DNA from: a virus
IMG/VR virus record: IMGVR_UViG_3300036830_000465
Coordinates: 1-63,641 of that record
DNA: 63,641 nt
Reading direction: 5' to 3' (one strand)
Shown: positions 987-63,641 of the stretch, in pieces
Numbering within the stretch: the first letter of the stretch is position 1
How the letters are laid out: each line of letters starts with the position of its first letter
Notes under the pieces: model-generated
Seen by the model: the letters and a program-made list of their open reading frames with translations, nothing else
Told to the model about the DNA's origin: nothing
Database searches by the model: none
Position numbers and translations under genes: made by a program

Positions 987-2288
987 CTAATATCCACTTC
1001 CAGTCCTTTCGATTCCGATATGTGTAACCCGAGGCCCGTCGCTTCGCTTCCCCAGAAACGCACACCGGTAGCCCTGATCCCACAACCGCGGCCCAAACTT
1101 CCCCTCTGATCCCGGAGCTTCCGGCCAGCCCATTCTCGCGATGCGGATGGGATACATACTGGGATTCGTCGAAAAGAACGCCCGGTGCGTCAGGTAATCT
1201 ACCCCGCCCCAGGACTCGTCCTTATAAAGGTCGGGCCACTGCGCAATGAACCCACCATCCGCTGGCTCCGCGCCCCACGGCTGGCGGCGCAAGCACACCT
1301 GCGCAAGGTCCGGATGGCTCTCCAGCAGGTTAAACGTTTCGTTCAAGTCCCACGGCTGATTGAGCAGAAAATCGTCTTCGCAGTGAACGATATATTCCGC
1401 GTGCGGCGGAATCAGCGCCCAGCCCTTTTGAATCGCGCCGGCGAAACCCAGGCGCCCCTGACTGTGGAAGATCGTAAACTCCGGAAACGCCGCGTCCAGC
1501 CATGCGGCATACTCCGGGCTCTGCGAGTCGTCGACCATGACATGGGAATTGCAGCGGGCCCGCACGCTGGCAAAGGAAGCCATCGTCCGCTCCATGCACT
1601 GCCGCCGCCCATCGGTAAGAACCAGCATGGCAATGTGACGGTCTTTGGCCCGGAAGATATCCGGGTGCACACGATCAGCGACGAACTGACGCTCGAACTG
1701 TGGCGGCAGCGTAATATCCGCCGTGATGTCTTCACGAATGTAGAGCATCCAGTTCTGGCGGTACCAGGGCGGAATCGCGGCCACATCCCAGAACTTGGAT
1801 TGAATAAACGGATGCGCCCAGAATTTCCGCTGATAGAAACGCTCGGCCCACCAGGACTGCCATTTTTCCGTCTGATGCCCTTCGCCGCCCTGGCCGGGGA
1901 TCGCCGCGGAGAACAAGACCATCGGCGCCATGTTGCACAGGTCGGCAACCAGCCGCTCTGCAGCGGCCGCGCTCAGGTGCTCAGCCACTTCCAGGCAGAT
2001 CGCCAACTCGCGCATTTTCCCGGCGATGTAACGGGACGATTCGAAGTTGTGGCGCCTGTACTCACCGACCGCGATCTCCATGCGCCGGTCCGCCCATTCG
2101 TGCCCGTCCACACCGTACACTTCGGCGGCGCCGCAGCGTTTGGCTTCGGCGAGAAAGTGACCCTCGCCACAGCCAATATCGATAATGGATTGCGGGTTGA
2201 ATAGGTCCATCAGCCAGGGAATCACCTGCGCTGCCGCAGCCTGACAGCCCGGACGAATGCTGTTGTAGAAGGCCTGATCGTAGCTCAC
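987..2288 (-). CDS. Methyltransferase-glycosyltransferase fusion
   Basis: 433 residues with two catalytic modules. Residues about 30-170 form a class I SAM-dependent methyltransferase with the glycine-rich motif I IIDIGCGEG and an acidic motif II (VDGHEW). Residues about 215-430 look like a GT-A glycosyltransferase: IAMLVLTDGR opens the fold, DDSQS follows, and HCEDDF is the metal-binding acidic motif. Its start overlaps the stop of the methyltransferase gene at 2285 by four bases (ATGA), so the two are translationally coupled. A sugar-transferring enzyme with a built-in methyltransferase suggests that O-methylated sugars are made or capped. Substrates are unknown. Confidence 0.75.
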   Translation of the reverse strand: MSYDQAFYNSIRPGCQAAAAQVIPWLMDLFNPQSIIDIGCGEGHFLAEAKRCGAAEVYGVDGHEWADRRMEIAVGEYRRHNFESSRYIAGKMRELAICLEVAEHLSAAAAERLVADLCNMAPMVLFSAAIPGQGGEGHQTEKWQSWWAERFYQRKFWAHPFIQSKFWDVAAIPPWYRQNWMLYIREDITADITLPPQFERQFVADRVHPDIFRAKDRHIAMLVLTDGRRQCMERTMASFASVRARCNSHVMVDDSQSPEYAAWLDAAFPEFTIFHSQGRLGFAGAIQKGWALIPPHAEYIVHCEDDFLLNQPWDLNETFNLLESHPDLAQVCLRRQPWGAEPADGGFIAQWPDLYKDESWGGVDYLTHRAFFSTNPSMYPIRIARMGWPEAPGSEGKFGPRLWDQGYRCAFLGKRSDGPRVTHIGIERTGSGY

Positions 2289-29191: not shown

Positions 29192-29359
29192 TCAGCCGAA
29201 AATCTTCAGAAAAACTGTGACGGCCGCGAGTAAAAACAGCGCCCCGCCGAGCAGGATCCCCTCGGCCTGATGGAGACGCTTCTGTTCCTTGAGGTATGCC
29301 GGGTCGGCAAAATCCGCGCGCCGGTAGTTGAAATAGTGATTCGGTGTCGGGGTGTGCAT
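29192..29359 (-). CDS. Small transmembrane protein
   Basis: 55 residues from the ATG at 29359 (AAAGGA seven bases upstream); another ATG at 29374 would add five residues. A single helix GILLGGALFLLAAVTVFLKIFG at the C-terminus. It is the first gene of the minus-strand late/replication operon and diverges from the integrase across about 47 bases that must hold both promoters. Function unknown. Confidence 0.5.
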   Translation of the reverse strand: MHTPTPNHYFNYRRADFADPAYLKEQKRLHQAEGILLGGALFLLAAVTVFLKIFG

Positions 29360-29406
29360 GGTTTGTCCTTTCATGGGTTACAATGCCCGCCTTCAGAGGT
29401 GGCAGG

Positions 29407-30537
29407 ATGTCGCTGTATAAACGCGGGCTGGTCTGGTTCTACGATTTCAAATTTGGCGGCCGGCGCCACCGTGGCTCGACGAAAGTCCGCAACCAGGCTA
29501 AAGCGCGGCAGATTGAAGAAAAACTGAAAACCGATCTGGCGCTGGGCAGGGCCGGGTTGCTGCAGTTGAAGCCCGCGCCGCAATTCCGCGTCTTTGCCGG
29601 CGGGAAATTCACCGATCACATTGAGGTCCACCACGCGAACAAGCCGCAGACCGTCAAGTTCTACGCCGAGAAAATCCGCCGGCTGCTCGAGTTCGCGGCG
29701 CTCGCCGATGCCCACCTGAACCAGATTGATGCTGATTTGATCGAGCGCTATGTCCAGTTCCGGGCGAAGAAAGGCCGCAAGCCGGGCGCGATCAACAGGG
29801 AACTGGCGACACTGCGCAAAGGCTTGAATCTCGCCGCGGAATGGAAGCTGCTGGCCCGGCCGCCGAAAATCCGGCTGATGCCCGGGGAGACCGGCAGGGA
29901 TTTCGTTCTGACCTACGCCATGGAAAAGGCTTATCTGGCGGCGGCGCCGAACCCCTTGAATGACGTCGCGGTACTGGGTCTCGATACCGGGCTGCGCCTG
30001 GCTGAAGCCCTGGCGCTGCAGTGGACGGACTTGACGGCAAACCGGGACGGCGACTGGATTTATCTGACGGTGCGCTCGGGCAAGAGTGCCAACGCGCACC
30101 GATCGATTCCGCTGACCGACCGTGGCCGGGCGATGTTGACCGTACGCCGCGAGGTTTTTCCGGATGCGCTCTGGGTCTTTCCCGGGCAGCGGAAAGGGAA
30201 GCACCTGACGGTCTGGGCGCTGGACAATATCCACGCGCAGCTGCGCCGGACGGCGGTCGATGCCGATGGCAAGACCATCTTCCCGCCGGAGTTCGTGATA
30301 CACTCCCTGCGCCATACGTTCGGAACGCGGCTCGGGGAAACCGGCGCCAACCCGTACCAGATCATGAAGTTGATGGGCCACTCCAGCCTGACGGTGAGCC
30401 AGAAGTACGTGCACCCGACTGCGGGGGGATTGGAGGCCGTCATGCGAGGTCTGGAGGCGATGAATCGTTTGGTGGGTGGTGAAACCGTAGAATCTCATGC
30501 GGGTACCCCCACGGTCCGTTCCCGTCCTGGTTCATGA
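29407..30537 (+). CDS. int: Tyrosine-type integrase
   Basis: 376 residues from the ATG at 29407 (MSLYKRGLVWFYDF, the N-terminal arm-binding type). The core-binding domain runs to about residue 160. Catalytic motifs are TGLRLAEALAL (first Arg), HSLRHTFGT (His-x-x-Arg), MGHSS and QKYVHP (Tyr nucleophile). It integrates and, with an excisionase, excises the phage. The upstream ATG at 29344 gives a longer frame without the family pattern. Its 3' end overlaps the convergent HNH gene at 30495 by 43 bases. Confidence 0.9.
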   Translation: MSLYKRGLVWFYDFKFGGRRHRGSTKVRNQAKARQIEEKLKTDLALGRAGLLQLKPAPQFRVFAGGKFTDHIEVHHANKPQTVKFYAEKIRRLLEFAALADAHLNQIDADLIERYVQFRAKKGRKPGAINRELATLRKGLNLAAEWKLLARPPKIRLMPGETGRDFVLTYAMEKAYLAAAPNPLNDVAVLGLDTGLRLAEALALQWTDLTANRDGDWIYLTVRSGKSANAHRSIPLTDRGRAMLTVRREVFPDALWVFPGQRKGKHLTVWALDNIHAQLRRTAVDADGKTIFPPEFVIHSLRHTFGTRLGETGANPYQIMKLMGHSSLTVSQKYVHPTAGGLEAVMRGLEAMNRLVGGETVESHAGTPTVRSRPGS

Positions 30538-35566: not shown

Positions 35567-36396
35567 GCGAAGCGACCCGCCCGCAGCTTCATTTTTCGGC
35601 GCTGGAGAAACTCTGGGCCTGCGGCGTCGCTTTCGCGCGCCGGTATCTGAACAAGGAGCGCGGGATCGCTCCCAGCTATATCCATGTGGGAAAGGCCGTC
35701 GATCACGCGGCCAACACCAACCTGCAACACAAAATCGATAGCGATTCCCTGCTGCCGGTCGAGCAGGTGGTCGACGAAGCCCGCGACGTTGTCACGCGCA
35801 GCATGGAAGACGAGGGGCTGCAGCTCGAGCCCGCCGATCGCGTCATCGGTGAGAAAGCCGCCAAGGCTGCGGTGGTCGATAAGACTGTTCGCGTCTGCAA
35901 GGCCCACGCCATGACTCTGGCGCCCCGGTTGAAACCAAAACGTGTTCAGGCGAAATGGTCGCTGGAAATTCCGGGAATGCCGTTTGACCTGGTGGGCACG
36001 CGCGACTTGGATGAAACCGACGATTCCGTCGCGGACCTGAAAACTTCAAAGCAATCGCCGAATAAAAATCAGGCCGTCACCAGCGATCAGCTCACCACCT
36101 ACGCCCTGTCGGTTCACGTAATCGGTAAAGTCCCGGTCCCGGTAAAAGTCCACCTCGACTACATCGTCGATTTGAAGACCGGAACGAAGGTGGCCGACCG
36201 GCTGACATCCACTCGCGGGAAAGATGATTTTGGCGTCCTGCTGCGCCGCCTGGAAAACGCATCGACCATTCTGCAGAAGGGCGCTTTTACCCCGGCCAAT
36301 CAGGGCCGCGACTGGTGGTGCAGCGTCCAGTACTGCGAGTTCGCCACAACCTGTCCCTATTTTCGAATGTCTCTGGCCGAATCAGAAGGAGAGTAA
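35563..36396 (+). CDS. Cas4-like PD-(D/E)xK nuclease with Fe-S cysteines
   Basis: 277 residues from the ATG at 35563. The first cysteine is in LWACGVAFARRYL; the last three are WWCSVQYCEFATTCPYF, together a likely 4Fe-4S ligand set. Between them lies the RecB-like nuclease core, with SLEIPGMPFDLVGTRDLDETDDSVADLKTSK (Asp and Asp-Leu-Lys of motifs II/III) and SDQLTTYALSV. It acts as an exonuclease that trims 5' ends for the RecT annealer encoded next. Confidence 0.75.
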   Translation: MSEATRPQLHFSALEKLWACGVAFARRYLNKERGIAPSYIHVGKAVDHAANTNLQHKIDSDSLLPVEQVVDEARDVVTRSMEDEGLQLEPADRVIGEKAAKAAVVDKTVRVCKAHAMTLAPRLKPKRVQAKWSLEIPGMPFDLVGTRDLDETDDSVADLKTSKQSPNKNQAVTSDQLTTYALSVHVIGKVPVPVKVHLDYIVDLKTGTKVADRLTSTRGKDDFGVLLRRLENASTILQKGAFTPANQGRDWWCSVQYCEFATTCPYFRMSLAESEGE

Positions 36397-36398
36397 AC

Positions 36399-37646
36399 AT
36401 GTCCACAGAAGTCGCGAAGGTCGATCAGGTAAAAATCGAATTATTAAAACCCATCAACGATGAGAACAATGTCCGCGCATTACTGGCTCAGTACCGCAAG
36501 GCATTCGAAGTCGCCGCAGTCAAGCACCTCGACGTCGACCGGCTGCTTCGCGTCGCGCTGATGACAGTATCCCGCAGTTCCGCATTGTTGGAGTGCACCG
36601 CAGCCAGCCTCCTTGGTTCAGTGATGCTGTCGGCCCAATTGGGCCTGGACATTGCGGCCCGCGAAGCATATTTGGTGCCCTTCAAAAACAAATACGGGAA
36701 GCGCGAGTGTCAGCTGATCCCGGATTATCGCGGGATCATGAAGCTGGTCCGGCAGAGCGGAATGGTTTCAAATTTCCGCGCGCGCTGCGTCTACAGGCAA
36801 GACAAGCTCGACATCGAAGAGGGCCTCAACCCGAGATTGGTGCACGTTCAATCCTATGAGCACGACTTCAAGGACGAAGACCTGATCGGCGTGTACACGG
36901 TCGCCGATTTCTGCGGTCCTGATGGTGCCCCTAGCGGCCTGAAGGATTTTCAATTCATGCCAATCGGTGCGATTAAAAGAATTCGCGCACGCAGCAAGGC
37001 CAGTAATGACGGACCGTGGGTGACCGACTTCGCGGAAATGGCGATGAAGACCGGCATCAAGCACCATGCGAAAACGCTGCCGCAGAATATTCAGATTGCC
37101 ACCGCGCTGCAGCTGGACGACCGGGCGACGATGGCACGGCCTCAGAAAATACAGATGTTTGAAGAAAATGGATTGACCACGATCGGCATTGATCCGGTTG
37201 AAGACCGCGACGATGCTCCGGAACGTGCCCGCGGCGTTGTCGACATCAATTCCCTGAAAGCGGGCTCCGAAGAAAACCGCGGCCACGGCAACGACAACCT
37301 CGATCAGGTTGGCAAGGACGCCGGCAAACCTGAGACGAAAACCGATAAAACTGAGACGCTCGACCAGAAACGCGCACGCCAGACCGCCGAAGCTGAGACG
37401 AAGAAGACCTCCCCTGAGAAGGCGGCCGCCTCTGACGGCGCCGATCCGGAAGCCGCGCTAACTCAGGAACAGCAGGAACAGCTGGAGACGGTCCGTCTCA
37501 ACCAGAACGTCGAGCCGCGCACCTGGAATACGTGGATCCGCAAAGCCTTCGATATCAAGTTGAGTTCCCATCTGCGGCAAAAACATTTCCCCCGCTGCCT
37601 CGCCTGGTGCGAAGCGGGAGGTCAGGAGCAACAGGATGCGCAGTAA
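36399..37646 (+). CDS. recT-like: RecT-family single-strand annealing protein
   Basis: 415 residues from the ATG at 36399 (AAGGAGAG upstream). LMTVSRSSALLECTAASLLGSVMLSAQLGLDIAAREAYLVPFKN and LIPDYRGIMKLVRQSG are the RecT hallmark blocks, followed by the WVTDFAEMAMKTGIKHHAKTLP segment. It anneals complementary single strands in phage recombination. The last about 110 residues are a charged, K/E-rich tail, which is not part of the conserved fold and may bind partners. Confidence 0.85.
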   Translation: MSTEVAKVDQVKIELLKPINDENNVRALLAQYRKAFEVAAVKHLDVDRLLRVALMTVSRSSALLECTAASLLGSVMLSAQLGLDIAAREAYLVPFKNKYGKRECQLIPDYRGIMKLVRQSGMVSNFRARCVYRQDKLDIEEGLNPRLVHVQSYEHDFKDEDLIGVYTVADFCGPDGAPSGLKDFQFMPIGAIKRIRARSKASNDGPWVTDFAEMAMKTGIKHHAKTLPQNIQIATALQLDDRATMARPQKIQMFEENGLTTIGIDPVEDRDDAPERARGVVDINSLKAGSEENRGHGNDNLDQVGKDAGKPETKTDKTETLDQKRARQTAEAETKKTSPEKAAASDGADPEAALTQEQQEQLETVRLNQNVEPRTWNTWIRKAFDIKLSSHLRQKHFPRCLAWCEAGGQEQQDAQ

Positions 37647-39036
37647 CAACGATCGGCCGGCGGTTCATGTGACCGCCCTCCGCATACACAACTTCATGGG
37701 TCTTTCGGATTTCGAGATCAAGCCCGGCAAAGTAACTCTCGTCCGGGGTTCCAACGGCGTCGGAAAGACATCGATCCTCGAAGCATTCAAAGCCGTTTTG
37801 AAAGGAGGTCATGATGCGAGTTTAATCCGGAAGGGCGAGGACGGCGCCGAGCTCGGCCTCGTCCTTTCCGATGGCGCGGACATTCAGAAGCGCATCCGCC
37901 AGGGTGATTCCAAAACGCAGGTCGACCACCCGGACTTCGGGCGGCTGCCCTCATCGGCGAAGTACCTGGGGAGTCTCTGCGATGCGTTCGCCGTCAATCC
38001 GGTGGAGTTCCTGACGGCCAAACCGGACAAGCGCGTGGAGCTGCTGCTGTCGGCGATTCCCATGACGGTGGCGGCTGTCGATCTGGCCGGAATACTCGAG
38101 CTGTGCTCGTCAAAGCCAGACCTGTCCCGGCACGCGCTGCAGGTGATCGCCGGTATCGAGAAAGACCTGTACGACCAGCGCACCGGGGTGAATCGGGCGG
38201 CGAAGGAGAAGCGGGCGACGATCAGCGAAATGCGGCGCGCGTTGCCGAAAGAGTCCGGAAACGCCGAAGAGACTGAACTGGTCAACACCGAGCGCGAATA
38301 TCGAGACATTCAGGCCAGCTGGGAAAAACGTAAAACGGAAGTCATCGAAATTCGCGCCAATGAGATCGGCCTGATCAAGGATGAAGGCCGCGCGTTTGCG
38401 GCGAAACACTTCGCAGAACGTGATCGTGAAATCGAGGCGATCCGCAAAAAGTATCAGGCCGAGGTGGATGCATATGCAGAATCCAAACAGGCCGAGGCCG
38501 CAGCGCTCAATTCAAAGTCGGATGAAAGCCTTCAGGAACTCGCCGAGGAGCGCACTTCACAAACCCAGGAATTTGAATCTCGAATTGCCAGGTTGCGCGC
38601 GGATAGAGACGCATTCGTTCGCTCCAGGGACGCCCGTATCGCCGTCGCCAAAATGGAAAGCGGCGCCGCCACGCTGGAATCCGATTCCTCCGCCTTCTCC
38701 GAAGCGCTGAAGATGCTCGACGACGTGCGCGGCAACCTGACCGAGCAGCTGCCCATCAAAGGCGTGACGCTCCGCGACGGCGACATCTACGTTGACGGGA
38801 TTCCGTTTGACCGCGTGAATGAGTCCCGGCGCATGCGGCTGGCGATTGAGATCGCCATGCTCCGCTCCGGAAACCTTCCGTTCATTGTGGTCGACGGCGC
38901 CGAAGCGCTGGATGCGAACAACCTGGAATTGCTGGCGGACACGGCCGTGGAGATGGGCGTCCAGATGGTTCTCGGTCTGGTGGCGGATGGGCCGAACGGG
39001 GAGCCGCGGCCGCTGGAAATAAAACAGATTGCATGA
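37636..39036 (+). CDS. SMC/RecF-like ATPase
   Basis: 466 residues. Walker A is GSNGVGKTSI, near the N-terminus after a strand VTALRIHNFMGLSDFEI (the RecF/SbcC-type start). Then come a long coiled coil (EREYRDIQASWEKRKTEVIEIRANEIGLIKDEGRAFAAKHF, shown in part) and the ABC-like C-terminus LPFIVVDGAEALDANNLELL with Walker B. It likely works with the Cas4-like nuclease and RecT in recombination, like SbcC or Gam-type complexes. It overlaps RecT by 11 bases. Confidence 0.75.
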   Translation: MRSNNDRPAVHVTALRIHNFMGLSDFEIKPGKVTLVRGSNGVGKTSILEAFKAVLKGGHDASLIRKGEDGAELGLVLSDGADIQKRIRQGDSKTQVDHPDFGRLPSSAKYLGSLCDAFAVNPVEFLTAKPDKRVELLLSAIPMTVAAVDLAGILELCSSKPDLSRHALQVIAGIEKDLYDQRTGVNRAAKEKRATISEMRRALPKESGNAEETELVNTEREYRDIQASWEKRKTEVIEIRANEIGLIKDEGRAFAAKHFAERDREIEAIRKKYQAEVDAYAESKQAEAAALNSKSDESLQELAEERTSQTQEFESRIARLRADRDAFVRSRDARIAVAKMESGAATLESDSSAFSEALKMLDDVRGNLTEQLPIKGVTLRDGDIYVDGIPFDRVNESRRMRLAIEIAMLRSGNLPFIVVDGAEALDANNLELLADTAVEMGVQMVLGLVADGPNGEPRPLEIKQIA

Positions 39037-60516: not shown

Positions 60517-60810
60517 TTACAGTGGGCGATCCGGACAGCCGGTGCACCCGTCGGGATTCAGCGCAATCAAAGAACACGCTGGCTTCAACGCGGCTATCTT
60601 CTCAGAATTACCCGCCGCCCGCAATACCAACTCGAATCGATGACGTTCCGGACACTGACTGTCGGCCAGAAGCCTGAAGTCGAACACTTTCAGGTGGAGC
60701 GCCCTTCTCTTGCCATCGTACTCGATCGATGCGGAATCCACTTCAATGCGGTGGCCGTTATATTCGATCTCGATCGCATGGCGATTCTTGTCCAGTCTGG
60801 CGGTGATCAT
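60517..60810 (-). CDS. Hypothetical protein with Cys cluster
   Basis: 97 residues. EIEYNGHRIEVDSASIEYDGKRRALHLKVF suggests a small beta sheet. The C-terminal ACSLIALNPDGCTGCPDRP has a Cys triplet. It overlaps the XRE gene at 60807 and precedes the chaperone gene by a 63-base gap. Confidence 0.5.
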   Translation of the reverse strand: MITARLDKNRHAIEIEYNGHRIEVDSASIEYDGKRRALHLKVFDFRLLADSQCPERHRFELVLRAAGNSEKIAALKPACSLIALNPDGCTGCPDRPL

Positions 60811-61070
60811 TTTCTCAATCGTACGCCAGGACCGCCGCCATTCTTCTCAATAAAAATCACTCCAGCTTTTGTGAGCGCCGCACAGATCCGCTCCATTGTG
60901 CCGGATCGCTGGTTTGCCCCTGCGGCTTCAATCATGACGAGAGTTCGCAGTGATACCCCGCACTCTTCCGCCAGTCTATCGCGCGACCAATTCAGAAGTG
61001 CACGCGCCGCCCTGATCTGAGAGGCCGTAATTTCAGTTGCATGTTTTGTGCAATATTCTCTTGACTGCAT
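60807..61070 (-). CDS. XRE-family regulator (autorepressor type)
   Basis: 87 residues from the ATG at 61070. ASQIRAARALLNWSRDRLAEECGVSLRTLVMIEAAG is a helix-turn-helix with a short C-terminal strand part (AGVIFIEKNGGG). It is divergent from the gene at 61136. Its ATG lies at the very start of its predicted transcript, so the message would be leaderless. Likely controls both directions through the palindromes at 61073-61097. Confidence 0.65.
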   Translation of the reverse strand: MQSREYCTKHATEITASQIRAARALLNWSRDRLAEECGVSLRTLVMIEAAGANQRSGTMERICAALTKAGVIFIEKNGGGPGVRLRK

Positions 61071-61072
61071 CG

Positions 61073-61105
61073 CGTGCAGTATTGCACGATTCGTGCATCT
61101 GTCAA
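61073..61105 (-). promoter_or_regulatory. Operator with two overlapping palindromes and minus promoter
   Basis: TGCACGA-T-TCGTGCA (61083-61097) is a perfect 15-base palindrome. CGTGCA-GTAT-TGCACG (61073-61088) overlaps it. A minus-strand promoter (TTGACA at 61105-61100, 16 bases, AATACT at 61083-61078) runs straight through the operator, with the start site near the ATG at 61070. A related half-site TTGTGCAATATT lies at about 61047-61056. Repressor binding would block both directions. Confidence 0.55.
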
Positions 61106-61135
61106 ACGACAGAAAAACACACCAAGGAGAATGCA

Positions 61136-61798
61136 ATGGCAACTACGAAGACCTCGGAAACAAAGTCGGTGGCAATTCCAGCGCCGAGATTCGGAAGGGC
61201 TGAATTCCTGATTGAGGGCACCGCCCCGCTCGTCATCCATCGGTTTTCAGCGAAGACAAAAGAGCAGATGAAACAAAAGATGGAGACCGGCAAGGCCGCC
61301 GGGAGCCGCAAAAACCGTGAGGCCAAACAGACCGATGATCTTTACAAAGAAGCGCGCTATATCAGCAAGGAAGGCTGGGACGGGTTTCACGCCGGAGCCG
61401 TGCGCAACGCTCTCATTTCAGCGTGCCGCCTTGTCGGCTTCAAAATGACGCTCGCTAAACTCTCGCTATTCGTCGAGGCCGATGGGCGCGATGCGGAAGA
61501 GCCCCAGATTCCACTCGTTCGAATCATCGGAAAATGCGTCAAGCAGGAAGATATGGCCAGGGTCGAAACCGGACAGCCTTACGTCACAGTTCGGGCGGCG
61601 TTCCATGAATGGAAGGCTAAGATCCGGCTGCGCTGGGACGAGGATCAGTTCACACTACAAGACGTTACCAATCTTCTCTCGCGAGTTGGAATGCAGGTCG
61701 GCCTGTGTGAGGGGCGCCCCGATTCTCCGAATTCTGCAGGAATGGGATGGGGCTTGTTTGAGATTTCCAAAACCGAACCAAGAAAGGCGACAGCGTGA
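61136..61798 (+). CDS. Hypothetical phage protein
   Basis: 220 residues from the ATG at 61136 (AAGGAG upstream). FGRAEFLIEGTAPLVIHRFSAKT, ISKEGWDGFHAGAVRNALISACRLVGF, EDMARVETGQPYVTVRAAFHEWKAKIRLRWDE and the closing GLCEGRPDSPNSAGMGWGLFEI follow a pattern I associate with a widespread, uncharacterised phage protein often found near recombination genes. Here it is the first gene of a divergent two-gene unit. Confidence 0.6.
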   Translation: MATTKTSETKSVAIPAPRFGRAEFLIEGTAPLVIHRFSAKTKEQMKQKMETGKAAGSRKNREAKQTDDLYKEARYISKEGWDGFHAGAVRNALISACRLVGFKMTLAKLSLFVEADGRDAEEPQIPLVRIIGKCVKQEDMARVETGQPYVTVRAAFHEWKAKIRLRWDEDQFTLQDVTNLLSRVGMQVGLCEGRPDSPNSAGMGWGLFEISKTEPRKATA

Positions 61799-62235
61799 CA
61801 AATCAGAAAATCATTTCGGAGCTTCGGCGCATCGCGAAAAAGCACGATGGCCTATTGAATCCATCGGACGTTGTCGAAGAGGCTCGCTCGAAATCTTCGC
61901 CGCTGCATGGAAAGTTCGAGTGGGACGATTCCGCGGCTGCGGAGCGTTACCGGCTCTGGCAGGCCCGTCAGCTTATCTCGGTTACCGTCGAATATGTCGG
62001 CGGCAATAAGGACGGCGTTCTTTCCAGAGTATTCGTAAGCCTCAGTTCGGACCGCAAAGAAGAGGGTGGCTACCGGACGATTGAAGCTGTCATGTCGAGG
62101 CAGGGAAGCCGCGAACGATTGCTTCAGGATGCGCTGGACGATATGCAGACATTCAGGGATCGTTATTCGGCGCTCAAGGAATTGGCCGGCGTCTTTGCGG
62201 CGATGCGCAAAGTCAGGGGCAAAGCAGCGGCATAG
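61795..62235 (+). CDS. Hypothetical phage protein
   Basis: 146 residues. RIAKKHDGLLNPSDVVEEARSKSSPLHGKFEWDDSAAAERYRLWQARQLI has the order of a commonly seen phage protein (SPLHxxFEWDDxxAAxxYR). It overlaps the stop of the gene at 61136 and is followed by the pentamer-repeat tract. Unknown function. Confidence 0.6.
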   Translation: MTNQKIISELRRIAKKHDGLLNPSDVVEEARSKSSPLHGKFEWDDSAAAERYRLWQARQLISVTVEYVGGNKDGVLSRVFVSLSSDRKEEGGYRTIEAVMSRQGSRERLLQDALDDMQTFRDRYSALKELAGVFAAMRKVRGKAAA

Positions 62236-62239
62236 AGAC

Positions 62240-62575
62240 TCTTTGGCGTGGATGGGCAGGTGGGGTCGTGCACGAAATGGCCTGTGGCGGCTGGGAGAGC
62301 TAAGGATGGGAATGGCTCTGCAGGTTAGGCGAGTCGGGTCAATGTCGGGACGGGAGTGTTCTGGTGTGGATTGTTAAGGCGCGGCAGGTCAGGTCAGGAA
62401 TGTTCAGGTGCGGCCGGGGTAGGCTGGTGAGGCCTGGGGTGGCAGGACAGGCGAGGTACGGATTGGACTGGATGGCCCAGGAGTGGAAAGTTTCTGTAGG
62501 GCAGGCAAGGTGCGGTATGGAAAGTCGGGGCGGGAAGCGTCGCGGGTAGGTAAGACGCGGCAGGCAAGTCTTAGC
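62240..62575 (+). repeat. Degenerate G-rich pentamer repeat tract, gene-free
   Basis: About 330 bases between the 61795 gene and the glycosyltransferase. The plus strand is G-rich and C-poor and follows a roughly five-base period of the type NNNGG (for example CAGGT CAGGT CAGGA, CTGGT GAGGC, GACTG GATGG), strongest from about 62380 to 62470. Short ORFs on either strand are shadows with repetitive Gly/Arg/Trp-type residues. Candidate roles are a non-coding RNA, a recombination or pairing site, or a replication signal. Confidence 0.6.
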
Positions 62576-63404
62576 TTCCGAGAATGGGGACTGGATCAAG
62601 CACCAGCTCCCCCATTCTGTCCTCGCGAAAATAGAAGTAACGCTCGAACCAATCGCGCAAGGCGGGCTCACCGCCGCGTTCGTAGGCCGCATAGTAGCTT
62701 CGCCAGTGCGCCCCCTCGTGTTCTGGAAGATTCGCCACCCGGTAAGCCAATCCGCCGTTGATCGATTTTTTTATGAAATGCTCGGCGCTTCTGTAGGGAA
62801 AGTGTGCGATGCGCAGCGCCGTCGTTTTCTTCGTTTGAAGAAGGCTCCCATCCGCATTCAGCGCGCTGTGATTGCCTTGCTGGACGGTCATCCCTGGGCT
62901 TGCGCGGAATATAACTTTCGGTAACACGTTCGGCGGCTTGTGCCGATGCTGGATGCGGAGGAAGGGATTCGCGTTCTCCTTGTCCATGTGACAAGGAAAG
63001 TAGTTGGCCATCGGAATTTCGAAACCGCGAACGTCGTCTTCCATTTCGAAGGACCGGAGATAGTCGCTGAAGGTTTCGCCGGTGTTGCAGATTAATAACT
63101 CGTCGGCATCGAATGGCACCAGCCAGGGGCGCTCGACGCCGGATAACTCGATTGCCCTGCCCACGAGAGATGTCATCTTCTGGCTCTGGTAGTAGCCCCG
63201 CTCCGGATCGTCGATAAGAATGATTGGGATGCCCGCCGATTTCTGAATGGTGGAAATCTGATAGCGCGTGCTGTCGGATGAGGCATTATCCGCAATGATG
63301 ATGCCGTCCACGCCGGAGGCGATGAGATGGAGTAGGGTGAAGGAAATGATGTCGGCTTCGTCCTTTACCATTCCAACAGCCCAGACCTGCGGAGCCTTGC
63401 TCAC
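62571..63404 (-). CDS. GT2/GT92-like glycosyltransferase
   Basis: 277 residues. AVGMVKDEADIISFTLLHLIASGVDGIIIADNASSDST is the GT2_4/GT92-type opening, and LVPFDADELLIC the DxD metal site. RFEI-like RGFEIPMANYF and LRIAHFPYRSAEHFIKKS follow. It is one of the cluster that continues across the circular join to 21-5320. No membrane segment; cytoplasmic. Confidence 0.75.
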   Translation of the reverse strand: MSKAPQVWAVGMVKDEADIISFTLLHLIASGVDGIIIADNASSDSTRYQISTIQKSAGIPIILIDDPERGYYQSQKMTSLVGRAIELSGVERPWLVPFDADELLICNTGETFSDYLRSFEMEDDVRGFEIPMANYFPCHMDKENANPFLRIQHRHKPPNVLPKVIFRASPGMTVQQGNHSALNADGSLLQTKKTTALRIAHFPYRSAEHFIKKSINGGLAYRVANLPEHEGAHWRSYYAAYERGGEPALRDWFERYFYFREDRMGELVLDPVPILGS

Positions 63405-63640
63405 TGCGCGAATGCCGAGCGCTCGGCCAGCATCAGTCTTTCAACCGTGGCATCGTGAAGAAGTCGCGCCCCATCGAGAGTTATCGAGCACTCGTAGCTT
63501 TGCTGAAATCCGGAGCTGTCCTTAATCTCGACCGCCCATGCGCCATGCAGCTGGTGATACCACGTCTCGACTTTCTGGCCATTATCGAGCGTCGTGATTC
63601 GTGATCCGTCCGGCCACTGCCTCTCGTTGACGATTGTCAT
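63401..63640 (-). CDS. Small hypothetical protein
   Basis: 79 residues. MTIVNERQWPDGSRITTLDNGQKVETWYHQLHG begins in a beta-rich pattern; the rest is helical (VERLMLAERSAFA). The ATG at 63640 only gains a proper Shine-Dalgarno (GGAG, nine bases) when the window ends are joined. It overlaps the glycosyltransferase ATG by four bases. Confidence 0.5.
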   Translation of the reverse strand: MTIVNERQWPDGSRITTLDNGQKVETWYHQLHGAWAVEIKDSSGFQQSYECSITLDGARLLHDATVERLMLAERSAFAQ

Positions 63641-63641
63641 T

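What the first reader, a model, noticed from the sequence alone, without database searches (positions are those of the whole stretch)
62240..62575. G-rich degenerate pentanucleotide tract next to two conserved phage genes
About 330 bases with no convincing gene but a strong five-base periodicity of NNNGG and plus-strand G over C skew. Translations of this tract give repetitive RQARYG-like peptides that I remember seeing as short hypothetical ORFs beside similar gene pairs in other phages. If position and period are conserved while sequence is not, this is a functional non-coding element.
Basis: partly seen in the sequence, partly recalled or inferred. Interest (0 to 1): 0.7.

Follow-up and report, generated by a model that had tools for sequence, protein, structure and literature searches.

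The report
Guide-RNA array of phage VIPR system
The odd G-rich five-base repeat next to two phage genes is almost certainly a set of guide RNAs that a small CRISPR-related phage protein uses to find and silence the DNA of rival phages, a kind of system first reported in 2026.

Summary
Window 62243-62571 (+) has period 5: autocorrelation 1.09, maximum 0.375 in 5000 shuffles. A model trained on 30 homologous loci gives the unit as YNNGG with free NN. The upstream gene (61136-61798) is a Cas7/Csm3-fold RAMP whose family profile matches the solved "SUSP1 Vipr protein" (36pp, E 5.5e-8). A 2026 preprint (PMC13142463) describes such loci as VIPR: Vipr, an accessory protein, and vrRNAs of YNNGG repeats whose NN pair with DNA, skipping one base per dinucleotide. 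All 30 loci carry the tract on the coding strand (L007's is cut by its contig end); of 126 other viral loci, two have short ones. The model blindly found SUSP1's four vrRNAs. Here guides are not separate tailed RNAs: a 4-nt unit, CAGG, punctuates one array, and whole modules turn over. In relatives some guides decode into Vipr or integrase gene sequence; no target was found for the window's guides. Verdict: new member of a known kind.

The parts
61136..61798 (+). vipr homologue, 220 aa, RAMP (Cas7/Csm3-like) protein; phrog_4652
   Evidence: Profile hit to PDB 36pp 'SUSP1 Vipr protein' E 5.5e-8; AlphaFold2 pLDDT 83.8; Foldseek Csm/Cmr subunits E 2.4e-4, VIA Z up to 10.4, rmsd 3.3, 135 aligned; PHROG E 7.1e-12
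61795..62235 (+). accessory gene in the vap position, 146 aa, phrog_15946; overlaps the end of vipr by 4 bases; possibly winged-helix DNA-binding
   Evidence: PHROG E 1.8e-23; homologue in 16 of 24 whole records; pLDDT 91.2; only weak winged-helix matches, Z up to 5.7, and no Foldseek E below 0.4 in PDB
62243..62571 (+). vrRNA (guide) array of YNNGG units
62247..62256 (+). leader: two YNNGG units before the first CAGG
   Evidence: Segmentation
62261..62320 (+). guide module 1, 12 units
62325..62384 (+). guide module 2, 12 units
62389..62442 (+). guide module 3, 7 units + CTGG + 3 units
62447..62501 (+). guide module 4, 11 units
62506..62560 (+). guide module 5, 11 units
62257..62260 (+). CAGG punctuation 1; others at 62321, 62385, 62443, 62502, 62561
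   Evidence: 177 of 241 four-nt units in 27 loci are CAGG
62581..62618 (+). stem-loop just after the array, possible RNA 3' end; overlaps the 3' end of the minus-strand gene at 62571-63404
   Evidence: MFE -21.2 kcal/mol for 62572-62630, z -2.89; no T-run, so not called as a terminator

Best explanation
The tract is the guide-RNA array of a phage-encoded VIPR system. Inferred working: the vipr-vap-array unit is transcribed rightwards; Vipr subunits line up on the RNA, each holding one GGY and exposing one NN dinucleotide; the NN of a module pair with double-stranded DNA as NNxNNx..., skipping one target base per unit, usually a codon's wobble base. Bound RNP blocks transcription of genes of competing phages or prophages. 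In this lineage the RNA is one continuous array in which a 4-nt unit (CAGG, in context GGCAGGC) replaces a 5-nt unit about every 8-12 units and marks the edge of each guide; whole modules are gained, lost or swapped. Shown here by computation: the repeat, its conservation, the RAMP homology, the punctuation, module turnover, and decodable guides in relatives. Inferred, or taken from the preprint's experiments on SUSP1: transcription, RNP assembly, DNA binding, repression.
For: Vipr homology by sequence and RAMP fold. Tract beside the gene in 30 of 30 homologous loci, same strand; 2 short tracts in 126 unrelated viral loci, 1.11 Mb. The independently learned unit equals the preprint's YNNGG. 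The same model finds SUSP1's four vrRNAs, one upstream and three downstream as the preprint reports. Two guides of the small L016 array match vipr genes at 19 of 22 and 16 of 18 bases with 1-nt skip, in codon frame; the other skips reach at most 15 of 22 and 14 of 18. An 18-unit array in L012 decodes antisense into an integrase C-terminal box (BLOSUM 79, five shuffles 44-49; DNA 25 of 36, other skips 20 or less there; integrase PF00589 E 5.6e-14). Whole-module insertion/deletion between phages.
Against: No target was found for the window's guides: six 8-unit cores covering four of five guides, scanned through IMG/VR, gave only hits whose extensions looked like chance, and no self-target lies in the window. 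Across 188 guides against 3.2 million letters, no hit had E below 0.01 at any skip, and skip 1 was only slightly ahead of shuffled guides. In the vipr-only test skip 1 gave 5 of 188 at the permutation floor, but skip 2 gave 3 and skip 0 gave 1. No per-guide 3' tail like SUSP1's is seen. The accessory gene is not detectably related to SUSP1's vap. No RNA data.
Confidence: 0.93

Rival explanations
1. It is VIPR, but the array mainly regulates the phage's own genes (vipr, integrase) rather than rivals.
For: L016's guides also match its own vipr at 15 of 22 and 15 of 18; L012's integrase guide matches the phage's own integrase next door at 25 of 36.
Against: The first L016 guide fits other phages' vipr better (19 of 22), and the own matches carry several mismatches. 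The four full-length window guides have no match in the window above 17 of 24. The preprint finds satellites and prophages as targets.
Confidence: 0.12
2. A DNA element (packaging, recombination or ssDNA-annealing-protein loading site) or a G-quadruplex former, with G-pairs every five bases.
For: GG spacing would suit such folds; the phage encodes a RecT-like protein at 36315-37643. That RecT binds about 5 nt per monomer is recalled.
Against: It tracks the vipr gene and strand in very different phages, has a pyrimidine position and CAGG punctuation, and some NN strings decode into gene sequence. None of these is expected from a G-quadruplex. No G-quadruplex predictor was run.
Confidence: 0.03
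3. A real but fast-evolving repetitive protein-coding gene.
For: Phage annotators called such ORFs (UmaThurman gp40, Donkeykong gp48).
Against: In the window all three + frames carry stops; 4-nt units shift the frame; the period is 5, not 3. Long open stretches are expected from NNGGY repeats, which contain few stop codons (reasoning).
Confidence: 0.01

Closest known systems
VIPR systems (Vipr + vap + vrRNA), preprint PMC13142463, best studied in Escherichia phage SUSP1 (type II)
   Same: RAMP homologue, adjacent small accessory gene, YNNGG repeats in flanking intergenic DNA on the coding strand, hypervariable NN, phage origin; 1-nt-skip decoding seen in relatives
   Different: SUSP1 vrRNAs are separate, each followed by its own tail sequence; here one continuous array with CAGG punctuation and no tail between guides; accessory protein unrelated by profile. 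[quoted passage not shown] S18, not readable here), which may be this form
Class 1 CRISPR-Cas (Csm3/Cas7 backbone on crRNA)
   Same: RAMP fold; array of modules with turnover
   Different: No CRISPR repeat-spacer array, and no other cas gene seen among the families hit in the window proteins searched (not an exhaustive search); guide is a gapped 5-nt code instead of contiguous spacers

Membership tests
VIPR system | Vipr, a RAMP homologue outside the CRISPR RAMPs | tested here: met
   36pp SUSP1 Vipr E 5.5e-8; SUSP1 vipr scores 35.7 bits with the family profile; Csm3-like fold Z 10. No tree against CRISPR RAMPs was built
VIPR system | G-loop and thumb elements of RAMPs | tested here: inconclusive
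   Fold met and a conserved GMGWG near the C-terminus; thumb not examined
VIPR system | Accessory vap gene next to vipr | tested here: inconclusive
   A conserved second gene is present, in 16 of 24 whole records, but it is unlike SUSP1 vap, and the vap1-6 sequences could not be read
VIPR system | vrRNA of YNNGG tandem repeats (GGY fixed, NN variable) in intergenic DNA | tested here: met
   30 of 30 loci
VIPR system | 9-16 repeats per vrRNA | tested here: met
   Window modules of 12, 12, 7+3, 11, 11 units; in 27 loci 112 of 177 CAGG-ended runs are 8-12 units, so some are shorter
VIPR system | NN pair with DNA by the 1-nt skip rule | tested here: inconclusive
   Supported in relatives L016 and L012; no target for the window's guides
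VIPR system | vrRNA expressed and bound by Vipr | not testable with these tools
   Needs sRNA-seq and pull-down
VIPR type II (SUSP1-like) | Each vrRNA ends in its own conserved 3' tail | tested here: not met
   No tail between modules; NN variability continues close to CAGG. Hence not filed as type II
VIPR hammerhead-interspersed arrays | Hammerhead ribozymes between guides | tested here: inconclusive
   No Rfam hammerhead hit in window 61000-63641 (E up to 1) or, at gathering scores, in 19 of 29 related loci searched
CRISPR array | Identical repeats separated by unique spacers | tested here: not met
   The only fixed elements are the GGY scaffold of each 5-nt unit and the 4-nt CAGG

The most novel reading that the evidence does not exclude
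In this lineage of VIPR the guides are cassettes of one tail-less transcript, delimited by a 4-nt stutter unit (GGCAGGC) that serves as the boundary signal for processing or for the first and last Vipr subunit. Whole cassettes are exchanged between phages like CRISPR spacers, and the guides include ones aimed at rivals' vipr and integrase genes. Because a guide interleaves target bases with GGY, cassettes cannot be made by simply copying target DNA, so an unknown encoding route or slow selection must create them.
Probability: 0.4. Interest if true: 0.72.

Novelty: new member of a known kind. Interest (0 to 1): 0.5.

Why it matters
VIPR is a months-old discovery argued to be the ancestor of CRISPR. 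This locus and its 29 relatives, from uncultivated, actinobacterial and cyanobacterial phages, add a lineage with a readable array grammar: where one guide ends and the next begins, and that guides turn over as units. That makes the next open question, how new guides arise in a gapped code, directly testable by comparing arrays of close phages. It also explains a class of repetitive 'hypothetical proteins' in actinophage annotations as misread guide arrays.

Tried and rejected
Rejected readings: protein-coding repeat (stops in all + frames); Rfam RNA (only two sub-threshold hits in window 61000-63641, neither in the tract; none at gathering in 19 related loci); known defence gene (no convincing PADLOC or NCBIfam hit: best E 0.012 and 0.011, both far from family scores).

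Target searches that led nowhere: modules 2 and 5 (two 8-unit cores each) and modules 1 and 4 (one core each) scanned through viral contigs; hits extended at about chance. The 62 hits of one core of module 5 share a common peptide pattern and sit in varied proteins; extension counts were 4:4, 3:10, 2:31, 1:14, 0:3 of 6 bases. Module 3 (7+3 units) was not scanned. Mycobacteriophage guides against Che8, Brocalys and BobaPhett: nothing. All guides against each other's flanks: at shuffle level. Decoded guides padded as short proteins against PHROGs: no hits, but the positive controls also failed, so this test is uninformative. Codon-phase test: NN composition fits codon positions 1-2 best (mean log-likelihood -2.757 against -2.864 and -2.938 for the other sense phases), yet hardly better than uniform (-2.773), so I treat it as weak; within-guide strand coherence was not significant for positions 1-2 (80 of 1000 permutations reached it) and was stronger for positions 2-3 (14 of 1000), which does not favour my reading. 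The top protein-level hit list also held a low-complexity false array (L110/L111, CA-rich), which I did not count as evidence. A fifth skip-1 vipr hit (L116 guide, 15 of 18) was not followed up. The L013/L014 guide hitting the vipr C-terminus counts as one guide, though it appears twice.

In the VIA-align list for gene 2 all matches are weak (Z up to 5.7), so winged helix is only suggested. Entry 36pp did not appear in the fold search, whose library stops at April 2026.

Full report
Observation. The tract 62243-62571 starts 8 bases after the stop of the 146-aa gene and ends at the stop of the minus-strand glycosyltransferase-like gene at 62571-63404. G autocorrelation peaks at lags 5, 10 and 14-15 and drifts to multiples of about 4.9. 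The combined statistic exceeds all 5000 dinucleotide shuffles, and the tract holds the best 250-base windows of the record. Strict Fourier power at exactly 5 did not exceed all shuffles; phase slips explain that.

Conservation. tblastn against 50,697 phage records found each gene in 33 records, with the same make-up for both: 27 Mycobacterium, 5 Gordonia, 1 cyanophage. IMG/VR gave 22 loci and genome contigs 2. I examined these 24, five of the phage records and the window: 30 loci, of which L010/L011, L013/L014 and L017/L018 are near-duplicates. A six-state HMM started from NNNGG and trained by EM converged on Y-N-N-G-G and marked tracts of 60 nt or more in 29 of 30 loci. The thirtieth, L007, has 53 nt running into its contig end. 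Every locus has its tract on the coding strand; three loci (L013, L014, L016) also show opposite-strand stretches. In 126 viral loci fetched for other reasons (1.11 Mb) the model marked 2 stretches, of 64 and 87 nt. Tracts lie upstream of gene 1 (e.g. L024, L027), between the genes (e.g. L023, L025, L026) or downstream of gene 2 (the window and most).

Protein. Gene 1 has no significant Pfam, PADLOC or NCBIfam hit. Its alignment profile finds one significant PDB sequence, 36pp 'SUSP1 Vipr protein'. The predicted structure matches Csm/Cmr subunits and Cas7 proteins by Foldseek and VIA-align. A fragment of SUSP1 Vipr finds Mycobacterium (28) and Gordonia (8) phage records among 160 by tblastn at E up to 1. 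Gene 2 is conserved and weakly winged-helix-like; 8 of 24 whole records lack it at E 0.001, two of them (G007, G013) with the contig ending near the gene pair.

What it is. I read the main text (parts 1-3 of 4, and the section of figure legends) of PMC13142463, not the supplement. It describes Vipr, vap and vrRNAs of 9-16 YNNGG repeats, the 1-nt skip rule, RNP co-purification, in vitro binding, repression and plaque protection, and seven types with variable arrays. The match in protein, repeat and layout is specific. As a control I ran my model on SUSP1: it marked four tracts, at L207 1946-2012, 3210-3290, 3358-3433 and 3514-3564, agreeing with the one upstream and three downstream vrRNAs of the preprint.

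Array grammar. In 27 non-redundant loci, 2072 units were segmented. Of 241 four-base units 177 are CAGG, and 112 of those 177 end runs of 8-12 full units. The base before CAGG is G in 99% of 151 contexts. In the window CAGG falls at 62257, 62321, 62385, 62443, 62502 and 62561, i.e. 64, 64, 58, 59 and 59 bases apart. No fixed tail separates modules, unlike SUSP1. In four Cheoctovirus phages the array ends are identical, but Donkeykong has 113 extra bases, matching two modules of 59 and 54 bases, that Brocalys lacks; Saal and BobaPhett carry a different module in the same place. I infer that CAGG marks guide edges. The main text of the preprint does not contain 'CAGG' or 'punctuat'; its 'staggered arrays' may be the same thing.

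Targets. In L016 a small array between the two genes has two guides. Read as NNxNNx they spell A[DE]T[FL][KN][DE]SRY[IM][RS] and G[IM]G[CW]G[CW][FL][DE][FL]; Vipr proteins of relatives read DDTFNEGRYIS or DQTFKEARYIS, and GMGWGLFEI. A guide of L013/L014 also fits the GMGWG site. A lone 18-unit array in L012 decodes antisense to the C-terminal box of that phage's own integrase. Against vipr genes, 5 of 188 guides reached the permutation floor at skip 1, with 1, 3 and 0 at skips 0, 2 and 3; the five include one guide counted twice and one not followed up. The broad scan at DNA level gave no hit with E below 0.01 for any skip. So the rule is supported by specific, in-frame cases, not by mass statistics. 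For the window's own guides no target was found.

Conclusion. The finding is a VIPR guide array, a new member of a known kind. Type could not be assigned; it is not SUSP1-like in array form or accessory gene. The punctuated array, its module turnover and rival-vipr guides are the parts that may add to what is printed; the library searches for this were made, and the preprint itself already reports vrRNAs aimed at other VIPR systems.

Noticed in passing
L024 2438-2824, L026 3583-3906: Annotated 'hypothetical proteins' (Donkeykong gp48, UmaThurman gp40) are guide arrays read as ORFs.
   Followed up: yes
L012 2375-2908 and 4202-5025; L016 4360-5300: Very long arrays of 530-940 nt, many guides per phage.
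   Followed up: partly
L012 5949-6042: A lone 18-unit array without CAGG, next to the integrase gene whose conserved C-terminal box it decodes (antisense).
   Followed up: partly
L003, L004, L008, L010, L011, L019: The accessory gene homologue is missing beside vipr at E 0.001; other ORFs sit in its place, so accessory genes may be exchanged.
   Followed up: no
window 36315-37643 and 37636-39033: RecT-like annealing protein followed by a conserved phage gene of unknown function (phrog_1499), with a weak SbcC-like N-terminal match.
   Followed up: no
window 29344-30534: Integrase gene (phrog_1, E 3.5e-49): the phage is probably temperate.
   Followed up: no
window 60807-61142: HTH regulator divergent from vipr, with a sigma-70-like site at 61105-61078 on the minus strand; no + strand promoter-like site was found.
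   Followed up: no
window 987-2285 and 62571-63404: Glycosyltransferase-like genes at both ends of the record.
   Followed up: no
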